Shown: piece by piece, positions 28,228 to 34,645 of the stretch | How positions within the stretch are numbered: the first letter of the stretch is position 1 | How the letters are laid out: each line of letters begins with the position of its first letter | Assembly: GCF_000504205.1 (NCBI RefSeq) | Contig: NZ_AZAJ01000001.1 | Location: 966,879-1,030,878 of the forward strand | Direction: 5' to 3' | From: Methanolobus tindarius DSM 2278 | Lineage (GTDB): Archaea; Halobacteriota; Methanosarcinia; Methanosarcinales; Methanosarcinaceae | DNA length: 64,000 nucleotides | The notes under the pieces: model-generated | The model's database searches: none | What the model was told of the DNA's origin: nothing | What the model saw: the letters and a program-made list of their open reading frames with translations, nothing else | Position numbers and translations under genes: made by a program

Positions 28228-29061
28228 ATGACACAGAATATCCAGAGTACAGAGGACCTTTTAAAGAAGCCAGAAGTGCCAAAGCTTGTCAGGAACATGA
28301 GAGCCATTAAAAAGAAGATAATGGTTATGAGCGGCAAAGGCGGAGTAGGAAAAAGTACTGTTGCTGCAAATCTGGCTGCAAGGCTTGCTGAACGCGGAAG
28401 CAAGGTAGGACTTCTTGATGCGGACATCCACGGACCAAGCATCCCGAAGATGTTCGGTATCGAGGATGTAAAACCGGAAGTTGATGAGAACGGCATCGTA
28501 CCTATCAGCGTCACAGAAAACCTTGTTGTAATGTCCGTAGCACTCCTTCTTGAAGACAAGGATGCACCAGTCATATGGAGAGGACCTGCAAAGATGGCAG
28601 CCATTAAACAGTTCCTTGAGGACGTTTCATGGGGCAATCTTGACTACCTTATCGTTGACCTTCCACCAGGAACCGGTGACGAACCACTGAGTATCGCACA
28701 ACTCATCGAGAAAATGGAAGGTGCAGTTGTTGTGACAACCCCACAGGATGTTGCTCTTGTAAGTGTCAGGAAATCCATCAAGTTCGCCGAGATCCTGAAA
28801 GTACCTGTGATTGGTATCGTAGAGAATATGGCTGGAATAATCTGCCCACACTGCGACGAAAAGATAGATATCTTCGGCAGAGGCGGAGTAGAAAAAGCAG
28901 CCAAAGATTTCAATGTAAACGTACTTGGTGAACTCCCAATGGACCCAAAGATCGCAGAGATCGAGGACAGCGGAAAAGTCCACACCGACATCAACGAAGA
29001 AATGCTCTGGGGCAAGGAATTTGCTTCAATTGTTGATTCAGTTGAGAGTTTTAAGAAATAA
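28228..29061 (+). CDS. Mrp/ApbC/NBP35-type Fe-S carrier ATPase
   Basis: This 277-residue P-loop ATPase binds and transfers Fe-S clusters. It has MSGKGGVGKSTVAANLA, LLDADIHGPSIPKMFG, LIVDLPPGTGDEPLS and the cluster-binding pair in GIICPHCDEKI. Length and motifs are normal for archaeal homologues, which can mature Fe-S enzymes. It is preceded by AAAGGAG and followed by a hairpin terminator, and it completes the orp-like cluster, where an Mrp-type ATPase is a regular member. Confidence 0.93.
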   Translation: MTQNIQSTEDLLKKPEVPKLVRNMRAIKKKIMVMSGKGGVGKSTVAANLAARLAERGSKVGLLDADIHGPSIPKMFGIEDVKPEVDENGIVPISVTENLVVMSVALLLEDKDAPVIWRGPAKMAAIKQFLEDVSWGNLDYLIVDLPPGTGDEPLSIAQLIEKMEGAVVVTTPQDVALVSVRKSIKFAEILKVPVIGIVENMAGIICPHCDEKIDIFGRGGVEKAAKDFNVNVLGELPMDPKIAEIEDSGKVHTDINEEMLWGKEFASIVDSVESFKK

Positions 29062-29102: not shown

Positions 29103-29207
29103 AGTTTAATGCCCAACTTGGCGGTCAAGGCTGAGTAAAACATAAACATAAGAGAAATAATAAATTAAAAAGTAGGAAAGGAAAAATAGAGGTTTTACGT
29201 GGCAACA

Positions 29208-29387
29208 ATAGAGTTAACCTTCCCCAAAAACAATATCATTCAACTGTTCTTCACTATATCTATCTGCTATATGTGATGTAAAAACTACATCAAAATTCTC
29301 ATACATCTTCCTCAAGAAGTTCCTCAGTCGGTTTCTATTTGTCAACCCGATTTCAGTATCCTCAAACCACATATTGGTCCATGTCCA
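29208..29387. repeat. Duplicated 3' gene segment, copy A
   Basis: This segment holds the 3' end of the 29214-29999 gene and is nearly identical to 31146-31325. About the first 130 bp match perfectly, and only two substitutions occur before the two copies diverge sharply. Confidence 0.9.
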
Positions 29388-29999
29388 AAAAACGACTTTG
29401 TAATATGCAGGGTCAGATATTTCAACGTGCTGATTTTCACTCTTTAATCCGTCATGAAATATGGATATATAAAAAGAATTGCTTAAAGGCAGTGAATCTC
29501 TAACCTGTTGGGGACTCAAAACCTCTTTATAATCGGGGTCTGCATACAACCCTTTTGAGCTGCAATCGATGTACATATCCTTTTCTTTAAGATTAAATCT
29601 AGTTTTCCCTGATATTTCTATTCTTCGTATATCAGCACCAACAATGTCCGAAGTTTTAAAATTCTGAACATCTTCCTTTAAATCCTGAAAGAATATTCCC
29701 TCCTCTGACTCAATCTTCCTTTCAAGGTATTCTAAATGGTTAACAGAAGCTTCGGATGAGCTGAAAGCAGTATTAACTGGGAAGTCTTCAGAATAGGTTA
29801 GTAAGCTATACTCAACCGTTGTCGGAATAAAAAATCCTTTCCCACCATCTAGTACTTTACCAACCACATCTAACATTTCATCTACAAATTCGGAAATTTT
29901 CATGGCTTTTCCTCTTACGTGGAAATTCCATCTGCTTTCATATTGAGGAGTATAAGCTAAAAAATCAATATTTGGTATTATGATATCACGTCCATTCAA
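29214..29999 (-). CDS. Unknown protein, candidate immunity partner of a toxin-like gene
   Basis: This encodes 261 residues from a TTG at 29999 with AGGA upstream; no ATG start exists in the first part. It has no signal peptide or membrane segment. Recognisable blocks are FLAYTPQYESRWNFHVRGK, RRIEISGKTRFNLKEKDMYI and RNRLRNFLRKMYENFDVVF near the end. It starts 30 bp after a polymorphic-toxin-like frame on the same strand, the usual place for an immunity gene, and has a decayed paralogue at 31153-31944. I do not recognise a named family; the immunity role is inferred from context. Confidence 0.55.
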   Translation of the reverse strand: MNGRDIIIPNIDFLAYTPQYESRWNFHVRGKAMKISEFVDEMLDVVGKVLDGGKGFFIPTTVEYSLLTYSEDFPVNTAFSSSEASVNHLEYLERKIESEEGIFFQDLKEDVQNFKTSDIVGADIRRIEISGKTRFNLKEKDMYIDCSSKGLYADPDYKEVLSPQQVRDSLPLSNSFYISIFHDGLKSENQHVEISDPAYYKVVFWTWTNMWFEDTEIGLTNRNRLRNFLRKMYENFDVVFTSHIADRYSEEQLNDIVFGEG

Positions 30000-30029: not shown

Positions 30030-31103
30030 TCAGTGAACTCCATCTGCAAAGAATATCTCTACCTCTTCAATAAGATTATTAGCAGGACTTTCATCTACTT
30101 TATATGCTAGATTCATATACTGATTAATCGTATCACCAATATCATTCTTATCAATTCCCAAGCCTTCCCTTGCATCAATCTCAAGCCTAGTTTTGCTACC
30201 GGTTTCTATTTGATGTCCAAACTTGCTTTGCCCTGAGTCCATGTAATCCCACAATTTACTCTCTGTCAAGTCTCCAATTGATTTTTTCTGATCAATATAT
30301 TTAGTTACTTCGACACCGTTTTCATTTATTTTTACCTTTAAGTCAATTTGCTTAATCGGCTCTATTTCTATGTCAGAAGTTATTTGTCTATAGTAAGATG
30401 TCCTCTCTGCTTCCTAAGCTAAACCCTTAAAGCTATTTTCATTAGCATTATTTATTAAATCTGTAGTAAACTTGCCTGATCTCTCAATATCAGAAATATC
30501 TGAGACATCACTGAGATATGCCCTTATAGCATCATCAGACACTCCATTTTGTTGCAAGGTTTCAAGTGACTCCTTGACCTTAAATTTTTTTGCATCCGAA
30601 GAGATTTTGCCAAACACTTCTGGAAAGTCTAGAAGTCCAAGTGATCCTGAATCATCAACAAGAAACACAGCAAATGAATCAATCTTTCGGGATACTTTCA
30701 TAAATTCCTTAACTTTGTCAATCTTTGTAGCTAGCCCAGCTGTAGCTTGACCAAACTGTTCCGATGTCTTTATGCTCTTTGTTGCCTCGCCACCCATGTA
30801 CATGGTGGCAAATGACATTGAAACATAACCTGAATACCAGCCACTTTCAAAATCATCATAGAGTTCATTATTCGAATCATAAGGGTTTTCCATTTCCTGA
30901 AGAACGGTTATAGTTCCAGGAAGATTTGCTGCAATATCTGCGATAAGAGTCGGGTCAGACAATATAGAACTAAAAAGATCTGTGATTGCTGTAATATATC
31001 CTAAAGAGTCCTTAAGTTCAATTGTTGTTGAGGGGTTTTTCTCCAGAACTATTGAAGCACCAGCAATGAAAATAACAAATAGATTAAAAAGAGATTTAAA
31101 AAA
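30030..31103 (-). pseudogene. 5'-truncated polymorphic-toxin-like gene with in-frame TAG
   Basis: One minus-strand frame is open from 31103 to the TGA at 30030, interrupted only by a TAG at 30414-30416. It begins without a start codon at a hydrophobic segment (LFVIFIAGASIVL), passes a YDDFESGWYSGYVS region like the pre-toxin part of secreted polymorphic toxins, reads SFKGLA-TAG-EAERTSYYRQ, and ends in a charged domain (GIDKNDIGDTINQYMNLAYK). The missing 5' end and the stop suggest a decayed gene. However, TAG can encode pyrrolysine in this lineage and the frame after it is fully open for 128 codons. Confidence 0.6.
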
Positions 31104-31145
31104 TCAAAGGGAGATAAAATATAATAGTCGCCTTTATTAACAATC

Positions 31146-31325
31146 AATAGAGTTAACCTTCCCCAAAAACAATATCATTCAACTGTTCTTCACTATATCT
31201 ATCTGCTATATGTGATGTAAAAACTACATCAAAATTCTCATACATCTTCCTCAAGAAGTTCCTCAGTCGGTTTCTATTTGTCAACCCGATTTCAGTACCC
31301 TCAAACCATATATTGGTCCATGTCC
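31146..31325. repeat. Duplicated 3' gene segment, copy B
   Basis: This is the second copy of 29208-29387, holding the 3' end of the 31153-31944 gene. Identity with copy A falls abruptly beyond about 31325. Confidence 0.9.
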
Positions 31326-31944
31326 AAAATAGGATTTTGTAAAAGGCTGGATCAGAGCTTTCAACATGTTGATTTTTATTCTTTAATCCATCATGAGAAA
31401 TTGTAATCTCAAATGGATTGCTTGAAGGCAATGAATCTACAACCTGTTGTGGGCTCAAAACCTCTTCATAGTTAGGGTAAGCGTATAAACCTGTTGAACT
31501 GCAATCGATGTACATGTCCTTTCCTTTAAGATTGAATCTGGTCTTCCCGGAAATTTCTATTCTTCGTATTTCGCCTCCAACCAGGTCTAGAGATTTCACA
31601 CTCTGGACATCTTCTTTGAAATCCTGAAACGAAAGTCCTTCCTCCGATTCTAGTTTCCTTTCAAGGAAGTTTAAACATTTTGTATGGACTTCTGATGAAC
31701 TAAAAACATCATTAGCTGGAAAGTCTTTTGAATACGTCCGCAAATTGTATTCAATCATTGTCGGAATAAAAAAATCCTTCCCGGCCTCTAATACTTTCTC
31801 TGTAATGGCCAGTATTTCATCGATTATTCCCAAGGCGTTCCTTGTTTTTCCTCTTATATGAAAGTCCCACAGACTTTCATACTGAGGAGTATATGCTAAA
31901 AAATCAATATTGGGTATTATAGTATCACGTCCAGTCCATTTGCA
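31153..31944 (-). pseudogene. Paralogue of the 29214-29999 gene, start codon missing
   Basis: This frame is homologous along its whole length to the gene at 29214-29999 (NIDFLAYTPQYESLWDFHIR, RRIEISGKTRFNLKGKDMYI, and an almost identical last 60 residues). The reading frame is open back to a TGA at 31945-31947. It has no ATG, GTG or TTG in the region matching the partner's start; the first usable start is a TTG at 31833, which would cut off 37 residues. The transposed-looking 3' end and the missing start suggest an orphan copy. Confidence 0.55.
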
Positions 31945-31958
31945 TCAGTTATAAGTAA

Positions 31959-32651
31959 TTAATATCCCAAATGTTCCCTAACTCTATCCATTTCATCTGA
32001 ACACCACAATACATCAGTGCATACAATGAGCATCACCCCGCCATTCTCCAGTTCCTCAACTTTAAATGCAGGAGAGGAAAGCAGAATATCACGCCCTATT
32101 TGATCTACAAAAGGTTTGGAATAGAAGCTTACTATGTTGGGTTTTTCTTTGAGGAAATCTTTTTTGTTGGAAGGCACAGAATCCTCATACTCGTTTCGGA
32201 AAGCTCCATGAGATAAATTAAATCTGACAAATAATTCCTTACATAAATCCATGAAGACTAAGAAAGTATTTTCATCGGGGACGAGATGCTCACCTGCTTT
32301 AAGTGAAATGAATGAATCATTATCCTTTACCTGAAGAATGTCAATACCAAAGCGGAAGTTAACTTCATTAAGATAGTCTAACCAAATACTAAAAGACGTG
32401 GTTTTCAGGTCAAACTTGGAGTATGTTTCAATGATTTCAGCTAGTTTTTCAGTAGATTCCTTCCTTTCTTCCTCATCATGTCCTATATCATTTTCCGGTT
32501 TATCGGTTAAGATTAGATAGTATGCTTTATATCGACTGCAGGCGTTGTATTTCACACCTCGTGAAACTAAAAAATAAAAAAGTTTGTGGATAAAGACCTG
32601 ATCAAGGTTTTTATCATACTGAAATTGAATCTCCCATTCCATTTGTATCAT
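31959..32651 (-). CDS. Imm52-like candidate immunity protein
   Basis: This is a 230-residue soluble protein. The C-terminal part runs DQIGRDILLSSPAFKVEELE, then GGVMLIVCTDVLWCSDE and REHLGY. That order recalls the Imm52 immunity family, in which a final acidic strand region is followed by a VREHLG helix. The assignment is from memory of the pattern, so it is tentative. It sits beside the toxin-like remnant and its two partner-gene copies, which supports an immunity role. Confidence 0.45.
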   Translation of the reverse strand: MIQMEWEIQFQYDKNLDQVFIHKLFYFLVSRGVKYNACSRYKAYYLILTDKPENDIGHDEEERKESTEKLAEIIETYSKFDLKTTSFSIWLDYLNEVNFRFGIDILQVKDNDSFISLKAGEHLVPDENTFLVFMDLCKELFVRFNLSHGAFRNEYEDSVPSNKKDFLKEKPNIVSFYSKPFVDQIGRDILLSSPAFKVEELENGGVMLIVCTDVLWCSDEMDRVREHLGY

Positions 32652-32830: not shown

Positions 32831-34645
32831 ATGGGAAGGGGGAGCCCTGAGAATATTGACAGGCTTGACTTCATAGATCCGACAGAACTCATCGAAGATG
32901 TCCTGCTGGACAGAAGCTGGCTGCTAAAGGAAAACTCGAACACACGTCTGAGTCCGTCTGTTATAGACCTGCACATTGCATCCCAGATCAAGAAACAGTA
33001 CGCTCTGGAGAAACTCTACTCACCGGAAAGTTCCCGGGCACACAGGGAAGGACTGATCCATATACATGACCTGCATGATCCTTTCAAAGCATATTGTAAC
33101 GGAATCGATGCAAGAGTATTCCTGAAAGACGGACTGAGGTTTCCGGATACTACAAGTCTTCCAGCAAAGCGATTTCAGTCTGCGCTCTTCCATTCAATGT
33201 CCTTTATGCTGCACTCTCAGCAATTTTTCGCCGGGGCGCAGGCAATAGATATGCTGAACTGGATGCTTGCACCACATCTCCATTACGATAATATCACTGA
33301 TGAACAGCTCAGGCAAATGATACAGGGATTCATGTTCCAGATGAACCAGTCCAACCGTCCCGGAGCCCAGAGCGCTTTTACCAATATCGGACTGAGAATA
33401 ACATGCCCTCCGCTCATTGCTGACCAGAAAGCCATATTCGCAGGAAAGAAGCTTGATGAAACTTATTATTCATTTGAAAAAGAAGCGAGAACAATTTACA
33501 GGGAGTTTATGGAAGTCGCTGCCGAAGGTGACGGACAGGGATTCCCATTTACATTCCCGTTGCTGACAACTGCCATAACCAAAGACCTTGACCCGGATGA
33601 TCCGCTCTGGAAACTTACAATGCATGCAACAGCTTCAACCGGAGCACCTTATTTCCTGAATCTAAAAACTGACTACCTTTCCGACGAAACAGTGCATGCA
33701 ATGTGCTGCCGGCTCTTTGCAAGACATACAGGCGGAATCTGGAGTGCCGGAGGAATGGGCAATGGTTCCAACAAAGTTGTTTCAATAAATCTTCCCGGTG
33801 TTGCACTTCGAGCTAAACAGCCGGACGATTTTTTTTCAGAACTTGACAGAGTTCTGGAAATTAGCAGGCAGGCACTTATTGAAGGTAACGAAATCATCAG
33901 AAAGTCTCTTAATGAATGGAAAATTCTGCCGTGGCTTCTGAAATCAACTGATGATGGAATGCCATATTACGAATTTGAGAAAAGACACCTGACATTTGGA
34001 GTCGTTGGACTGAATGAGTGCCTCATGAACCTCACAGGCGAAGGCATTCTTGGGAAAAAGAAAGAAGGCATGGAAATAATACGATACATGGCAGACAGGA
34101 TACAGGAATTTGCCATTGATGACAATGTAGAGTATACTCTGGAACAGACACCTGCTGAAAGTACTGCCCATCGTTTTGCGCTGCTGGATAAAGAACGATA
34201 CGATGGCAAAGCAAACATTCAGGGCAGCGATGAGGTTCCATATTACACCAATTCCACTCATGTTCCTTACAAAACTGAGACATCTCTTGTCAATCGCATA
34301 GCAACCGAAGCGGAGTTTCATCCGTATTTTACAGGTGGTACAATCTGTCATATCTGGATGGGTGAAAGTTTTCCGGACCCGGGAGGACTTTCAGATTTTG
34401 TTGAGCGGTTAACAGGGACAGAACTTGCATACTTCTGTTTTTCACCGGATTTCTCCATATGCAAAAATGGCCATAGCTCCAGAGGAATACAGGAAAGATG
34501 CCCTCATTGTCAGGCAGAAATAGTTGACCACATTTCCAGAGTTACCGGCTACTATGGCCATGTAAACAACTGGAATCCCGGAAAGGTTATGGAATACAAA
34601 GAACGCCACAGGTACAGAATGGACTGCACGCAGAAAGATAAATAA
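32831..34645 (+). CDS. nrdD: Anaerobic ribonucleoside-triphosphate reductase, short form
   Basis: This 604-residue class III ribonucleotide reductase has MNQSNRPGAQSAFTNIGLR and ITCPPL in the barrel, TEFHPYFTGGT-like EAEFHPYFTGGTICHIWMGE, a Cys4 zinc site (CKNGHSSRGIQERCPHC) and the glycyl-radical motif SRVTGYYGHVNNWN near the end. It lacks the N-terminal ATP-cone found in the other copy here (48274-50673), so it would not have that allosteric site. No activase lies beside it; it may use the NrdG at 47477. The next gene encodes a toroid-repeat protein. Confidence 0.93.
   Translation: MGRGSPENIDRLDFIDPTELIEDVLLDRSWLLKENSNTRLSPSVIDLHIASQIKKQYALEKLYSPESSRAHREGLIHIHDLHDPFKAYCNGIDARVFLKDGLRFPDTTSLPAKRFQSALFHSMSFMLHSQQFFAGAQAIDMLNWMLAPHLHYDNITDEQLRQMIQGFMFQMNQSNRPGAQSAFTNIGLRITCPPLIADQKAIFAGKKLDETYYSFEKEARTIYREFMEVAAEGDGQGFPFTFPLLTTAITKDLDPDDPLWKLTMHATASTGAPYFLNLKTDYLSDETVHAMCCRLFARHTGGIWSAGGMGNGSNKVVSINLPGVALRAKQPDDFFSELDRVLEISRQALIEGNEIIRKSLNEWKILPWLLKSTDDGMPYYEFEKRHLTFGVVGLNECLMNLTGEGILGKKKEGMEIIRYMADRIQEFAIDDNVEYTLEQTPAESTAHRFALLDKERYDGKANIQGSDEVPYYTNSTHVPYKTETSLVNRIATEAEFHPYFTGGTICHIWMGESFPDPGGLSDFVERLTGTELAYFCFSPDFSICKNGHSSRGIQERCPHCQAEIVDHISRVTGYYGHVNNWNPGKVMEYKERHRYRMDCTQKDK

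What the first reader, a model, noticed from the sequence alone, without database searches (positions are those of the whole stretch)
30030..31103. In-frame TAG inside a toxin-like gene: decay or pyrrolysine/readthrough?
The frame is open on both sides of the single TAG at 30414-30416, and the 128 codons after it read as a plausible domain followed directly by a partner gene. Methanosarcinaceae can insert pyrrolysine at TAG. The gene also lacks a start codon at its 5' end, which argues for decay. The same codon ends several nearby genes.
Basis: partly seen in the sequence, partly recalled or inferred. Interest (0 to 1): 0.62.

Follow-up and report, generated by a model that had tools for sequence, protein, structure and literature searches.

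The report
Broken orphan toxin cassette with TAG
In a methane-making archaeon that can read TAG as pyrrolysine, this TAG most likely is an ordinary disabling mutation in a left-over toxin fragment kept beside intact immunity genes, so it is not good evidence of a new pyrrolysine protein.

Summary
In detail: on the minus strand, a frame open from 31106 to 30030 is broken once, by TAG at 30416-30414. Both halves have gene-like codon usage, and no start codon lies in the first 48 codons. The claim that TAG ends "several nearby genes" is not borne out. The organism has a complete pyrrolysine system (pylS, B, C, D, tRNA-Pyl), and its methylamine methyltransferase genes carry in-frame TAG. TAG also ends about 7% of genes.

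The gene is a 5'-truncated piece of a polymorphic toxin: a pre-toxin domain shared with haloarchaeal TSP3 proteins of 1,200-1,780 residues, then a variable C-terminal domain and an immunity-like gene. It lies in a 3.7-kb island between mrp and nrdD that relatives lack. The one congener with a similar island carries a homologous fragment broken by two in-frame TAA, which pyrrolysine cannot explain. Five related toxin domains have Phe where the TAG appears to stand; that alignment is suggestive only.

Best reading: an orphan toxin/immunity cassette, as in bacterial CDI loci, with immunity genes under purifying selection and an unexpressed toxin fragment that took a nonsense mutation. Incidental read-through is possible; a functional pyrrolysine is unlikely.

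The parts
30030..31106 (-). 5'-truncated polymorphic-toxin fragment (pre-toxin region, linker, C-terminal domain), one in-frame TAG
   Evidence: frame and codon scores; homology to haloarchaeal toxin-like proteins and to G060
30741..31010 (-). conserved pre-toxin domain (KDSLGYITAITDLF...NPYDSNNELYDDFESGWYSGYVSM...)
   Evidence: 81% amino-acid identity to G060, 23-26% to haloarchaeal proteins; invariant N-P, Y, W, G-Y columns; SW score 143 against at most 63 in 300 shuffles; dN/dS 0.22 to G060
30414..30416 (-). in-frame TAG, at the place where five related toxin domains have Phe in KGxxFEAE (alignment suggestive)
   Evidence: motif comparison
30030..30413 (-). variable C-terminal domain, possibly restriction-endonuclease-like (inferred), 127 codons
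   Evidence: coding score 0.308 in frame; no family match; no homologue in 393 genomes of the phylum
29214..29999 (-). immunity-like gene copy 1, directly after the toxin fragment (TTG start)
   Evidence: position; 75% amino-acid identity to copy 2, dN/dS 0.18
31153..31932 (-). immunity-like gene copy 2; no in-frame start codon at its conserved 5' end (first TTG at 31833)
31959..32651 (-). immunity-like gene of a second family, which elsewhere follows restriction-endonuclease-like toxin domains
   Evidence: 55-65% identity to three tandem G060 copies; homologue directly after toxin genes in Halorussus (E 7e-41), related in G351 and Haloarcula
28228..29061 (+). flank: Mrp/ApbC-like ATPase gene, left boundary of the island
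   Evidence: orthologue in 26 of 27 genus genomes; in many the next gene is nrdD
32831..34645 (+). flank: anaerobic ribonucleotide reductase-like gene (nrdD, named from its sequence), right boundary of the island
   Evidence: directly next to mrp in relatives without the island

Best explanation
This is an orphan toxin/immunity cassette of an archaeal polymorphic toxin, and the TAG is a nonsense mutation in its unexpressed toxin fragment. Shown: the fragment begins inside a pre-toxin domain that in haloarchaea lies hundreds of residues into much longer proteins; it has no start codon; it is followed by an immunity-like gene and sits in an island of immunity-like genes that relatives lack. Inferred: recombination left this toxin tail behind without the front half of its gene. 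The immunity-like genes are retained because they protect against toxins of neighbours. The tail is not translated, so a stop codon in it costs nothing. The TAG probably replaced a conserved hydrophobic, probably aromatic, residue just before the conserved Glu of a nuclease-like toxin domain. Because the cell charges tRNA-Pyl, any ribosome that did reach the TAG might sometimes insert pyrrolysine, but as a by-product.
For: No start codon in frame and 5' truncation relative to 1,226-1,778-residue proteins: the alignment starts at residue 610, 1,218 or 1,486 of those proteins. The orthologous island in congener G060 holds a homologous fragment with two in-frame TAA, a further broken toxin-domain copy and three immunity genes, with an IS transposase gene just upstream. 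Empty site mrp-nrdD in G046, G061, G062, G063 and others. Immunity-like genes under purifying selection: dN/dS 0.18 within the window, 0.17-0.26 against G060. The second immunity family follows toxin domains in Halorussus and G351. Five related toxin domains all have Phe at the position matched by the TAG. Orphan CDI toxin tails lack initiation signals and are not made while their immunity genes are, and they can be disrupted by IS elements (PMC3150448). Single in-frame amber codons by neutral mutation are discussed for Pyl organisms (PMC3639795).
Against: Apart from the TAG the fragment has no frameshift or second stop in 357 codons and keeps good codon usage, so it is either recently broken or still maintained. 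The stop is the one that this cell can read as pyrrolysine. TAG is the rarest stop here (25 of 335), so a random nonsense mutation would more often be TAA or TGA. No transcript or protein data exist. The Phe alignment rests on a nine-residue motif (7 of 9 identical, reached in 2 of 150 shuffles); a profile of the five domains does not find the window domain significantly.
Confidence: 0.85

Rival explanations
1. Functional pyrrolysine protein: the TAG is read as pyrrolysine and the toxin domain is made only when pyrrolysine is available, for example during growth on methylamines.
For: Complete pyl gene set and tRNA-Pyl. mtmB and mtbB with in-frame TAG show that TAG is read in this genome. Coding quality is equal on both sides of the TAG. 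Literature: no cis element is needed for UAG decoding (PMC8211752).
Against: No start codon and no front half of the protein. TAG not conserved in any homologue; the G060 homologue is broken by TAA instead. Related domains have Phe, not a Lys-like or catalytic residue, at the likely position. TAG also serves as an ordinary stop (25 of 335 ORFs; for example ksgA ends in TAG with another methyltransferase gene in frame after it).
Confidence: 0.04
2. Reservoir cassette: the toxin tail is kept silent but under selection as a donor for recombination onto a full-length toxin, and pyrrolysine read-through makes the TAG nearly neutral, so it would still work after transfer in Pyl-decoding relatives.
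For: Frame intact apart from the TAG; pre-toxin dN/dS 0.22 to G060; CDI orphan tails are functional when joined to a full-length toxin (PMC3150448).
Against: No full-length acceptor toxin in this genome: only this copy is found. In G060 the stops are TAA, and another copy is frameshifted. dN/dS may reflect a time when the gene was whole.
Confidence: 0.08
3. Two genes: the TAG is a true stop and the downstream 127 codons belong to a separate protein.
For: Downstream TTG at 30269 opens a 79-codon ORF. In-frame gene neighbours split by TAG exist elsewhere (L021:6598).
Against: Codon usage is coding immediately after the TAG with no start codon for 48 codons. The congener and haloarchaeal architectures have the toxin domain continuous with the pre-toxin region.
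Confidence: 0.02
4. Sequencing error at the TAG.
For: Single interruption, no other damage in the frame.
Against: Single-contig genome of 99.95% completeness; the 5' truncation and the sister locus show real decay regardless of this base.
Confidence: 0.01

Closest known systems
Orphan cdiA-CT/cdiI modules of bacterial CDI and Rhs loci (Poole et al. 2011, PMC3150448)
   Same: Toxin-tail fragment without start codon, followed by an immunity gene; tandem arrays; tails of different kinds share the upstream region; disruption by IS in a congener; immunity genes intact.
   Different: Archaeal; no CdiA/CdiB, VENN motif or RHS repeats; no full-length parent toxin found in the genome; toxin and immunity activity untested; one TAG in the tail.
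Archaeal polymorphic toxins (Zhang et al. 2012, PMC3482391)
   Same: Large secreted-type proteins with variable C-terminal toxin domains, restriction-endonuclease-like folds among them, and adjacent immunity genes; known in Methanosarcina acetivorans and haloarchaea.
   Different: The pre-toxin domain and both immunity families match no Pfam or NCBIfam model; in the window only the tail survives.
Pyrrolysine-containing methylamine methyltransferases (mtmB, mtbB, mttB)
   Same: One in-frame TAG in a Pyl-decoding methanogen with coding sequence on both sides.
   Different: There the TAG is conserved at one active-site position and the genes are intact; here it is unique, in a truncated gene, at a position occupied by Phe in relatives.

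Membership tests
Pyrrolysine-encoding gene | Organism has pylT, pylS and pylBCD | tested here: met
Pyrrolysine-encoding gene | In-frame TAG conserved among homologues | tested here: not met
   G060 homologue has two TAA and no TAG there; no other homologue of the downstream domain
Pyrrolysine-encoding gene | Intact gene with start codon | tested here: not met
Pyrrolysine-encoding gene | Pyrrolysine found in the protein | not testable with these tools
   needs mass spectrometry
Orphan toxin/immunity module | Toxin tail homologous to the C-terminal part of a larger protein | tested here: met
Orphan toxin/immunity module | Tail lacks translation start | tested here: met
Orphan toxin/immunity module | Followed by an immunity gene that is kept intact | tested here: met
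   29999-29214 open; dN/dS 0.18 against its paralogue; immunity function itself untested
Orphan toxin/immunity module | Lies downstream of a full-length toxin gene | tested here: not met
   no full-length copy in the genome
Restriction-endonuclease-like toxin domain | Helix Glu, Asp, (D/E)xK motif and core fold | tested here: inconclusive
   motif-like E, QID, IDQK in order, but profile not significant; AlphaFold model unusable, pLDDT 34

The most novel reading that the evidence does not exclude
Pyrrolysine supply gates a toxin: the amber codon at the start of the catalytic domain lets the tail be made only in cells with charged tRNA-Pyl, so an orphan toxin cassette would be functional only in methylamine-using methanogens.
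Probability: 0.03. Interest if true: 0.8.

Novelty: new member of a known kind. Interest (0 to 1): 0.27.

Why it matters
It shows how to judge an in-frame TAG in a pyrrolysine-decoding genome: pyl genes and a clean frame are not enough, because TAA- and TGA-broken frames occur at a similar rate (in about 480 kb: two TAA and three TGA cases without a nearby ATG) and a sister locus is broken by TAA. The locus also adds an orphan toxin/immunity island in a methanogen, with a pre-toxin domain and an immunity family shared with haloarchaea that match no Pfam or NCBIfam model.

Tried and rejected
Homologues of the downstream domain: none in 393 genomes of the phylum, viral contigs or phages; Pfam, NCBIfam and PADLOC gave nothing significant and the solved structures gave no match. 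The hits L006 and L007 are chance matches: they lie in long genes of other kinds and vanish with the profile search. The genome-contig scan with the upstream half found nothing; the profile scan gave one haloarchaeal locus. AlphaFold of the tail and of the immunity pair had pLDDT 34 and 33 and was not used, so no fold search was run. An alignment of the window tail with single related tails is no better than shuffles. L068 is a chance hit.

Full report
Observation. The feature lies on the minus strand. The frame is open from 31106 to 30030 with one internal stop, TAG at 30416-30414, 229 codons before and 127 after it, and ends in TGA. In-frame codon scores are 0.283 and 0.308 bits per codon for the two halves, with all other frames tested at 0.04 or below, and a gene median of 0.318; one of 5,000 shuffles leaves the downstream stretch open. 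The frame starts right after a stop and has no start codon for 48 codons. The remark that TAG ends several nearby genes is not supported: in the window two other ORFs end in TAG, both more than 10 kb away.

Pyrrolysine capacity. The window lies in a 3.15-Mb single-contig genome. It has pylS, with pylB, pylC and pylD beside it (named from their sequences and order), and a tRNA-Pyl with anticodon CTA. The mtmB next to the pyl genes carries an in-frame TAG and a PYLIS element; a second mtmB and an mtbB elsewhere also have one TAG each. So the cell reads TAG as pyrrolysine. TAG also ends 25 of 335 sampled ORFs, and ksgA ends in TAG with another methyltransferase gene in the same frame after it. 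A complete pyl set therefore permits read-through here but does not point to this TAG.

What the gene is. The first part of the fragment is a pre-toxin domain: 81% identical to a congener (G060) and 23-26% to haloarchaeal plasmid-encoded proteins of 1,226 to 1,778 residues; the best local alignment scores 143 against at most 63 in 300 shuffles. In those proteins the matched region starts 610 to 1,486 residues from the N-terminus, and two of them have TSP3 repeats. The window fragment is thus the tail of such a protein without its front. A Halorussus protein joins the same pre-toxin domain (E 5.5e-8) to a C-terminal domain with a restriction-endonuclease-like motif order and is followed by an immunity-like gene.

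The island. Between mrp (28228-29061) and nrdD (32831-34645) lie three immunity-like genes and the fragment, all on the minus strand. Two of the immunity-like genes are paralogues (75% identical; 80% at DNA level) that flank the fragment; no homologue of them was found elsewhere in 112 genomes of the family. The third (32651-31959) belongs to a family that follows toxin domains in Halorussus (E 7e-41), with weaker matches after toxin genes in G351 and Haloarcula. In G046, G061, G062, G063, G042 and others nrdD follows mrp directly: the island is absent there. G060 has a similar island next to mrp: transposase gene, toxin fragment with a different C-terminal domain and two in-frame TAA, immunity gene, another broken toxin-domain copy, and two more immunity genes. 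G046 and G061 are closer to the window in Mrp (97% and 96%) than G060 (95%) yet lack the island, so it was lost or moved more than once.

Which residue stands at the TAG. Five related C-terminal domains (two in G060, two in G351, one in Halorussus) have a KGxxFEAE-like motif with Phe at the fifth place; the window reads FKGLA-TAG-EAE. Seven of nine residues agree with G060; 2 of 150 shuffles reach that. A profile of the five domains does not detect the window domain significantly beyond this motif. The alignment is therefore suggestive. If right, the TAG replaced a conserved aromatic residue, not a lysine-like one.

Selection. The two window immunity-like genes differ with dN/dS 0.18, the third against G060 copies with 0.17-0.26, and the pre-toxin domain with 0.22. 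The immunity-like genes are open; copy 2 lacks an in-frame start codon at its conserved 5' end. The toxin fragments are broken in both genomes.

Mechanism. The picture matches orphan CDI modules, whose toxin tails lack start signals and are not made, while the immunity genes are expressed and protect the cell (PMC3150448). Truncation, gene order, empty site and selection are shown here; immunity function, toxicity and lack of expression are inferred. A stop codon in an untranslated tail is neutral. In a pyrrolysine organism such amber mutations may be partly read, and in-frame UAG by neutral evolution has been proposed (PMC3639795); UAG decoding needs no special context (PMC8211752).

Base rate. 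In about 480 kb of this genome, interrupted frames with coding on both sides and no nearby ATG number three with TAG (two mtmB and this one), three with TGA and two with TAA. The mtbB case falls just outside that filter because an ATG lies near. Apart from the methyltransferases, this case is one of several interruptions and not an excess of TAG.

Verdict. Observation largely real, pyl genes real, pyrrolysine function unlikely (about 4%); orphan-cassette decay most likely (85%).

Noticed in passing
window 29206-29505 and 31145-31444: The 3' 300 bases of the two immunity-like paralogues are 90% identical while the rest is about 75%, which suggests recent gene conversion or recombination at the 3' end.
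   Followed up: partly
window 31915-31985: Immunity-like copy 2 lacks an in-frame start codon; an out-of-frame ATGCAAATGGACTGG resembles the start (MQMDW) of the other immunity family, as if two immunity genes were joined there.
   Followed up: partly
L010 12797-16597 (G060): Congener island at the same place next to mrp with one toxin fragment, a broken second toxin-domain copy and three tandem immunity genes of the family of window 32651-31959.
   Followed up: yes
L072 1-4078 (Halorussus caseinilyticus plasmid NZ_CP119812.1), L070 and L067 (G351): Apparently intact archaeal toxin-like genes with KGxxFEAE/ELK or ECK C-terminal domains, followed by immunity-like genes related to window 32651-31959; the window and G060 members match no Pfam model.
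   Followed up: partly
L009 14770-15654 and 13892-14740: Two regulator-like ORFs between the pyl genes and mtmCB are open only when a TAG is read through or a later start is used; not examined.
   Followed up: no
L027:11777 (TGA), L021:10853 (TGA), L030:16844 (TAA): Other frames in this genome with coding-like halves and a single non-TAG stop, possible pseudogenes or in-frame neighbours.
   Followed up: no
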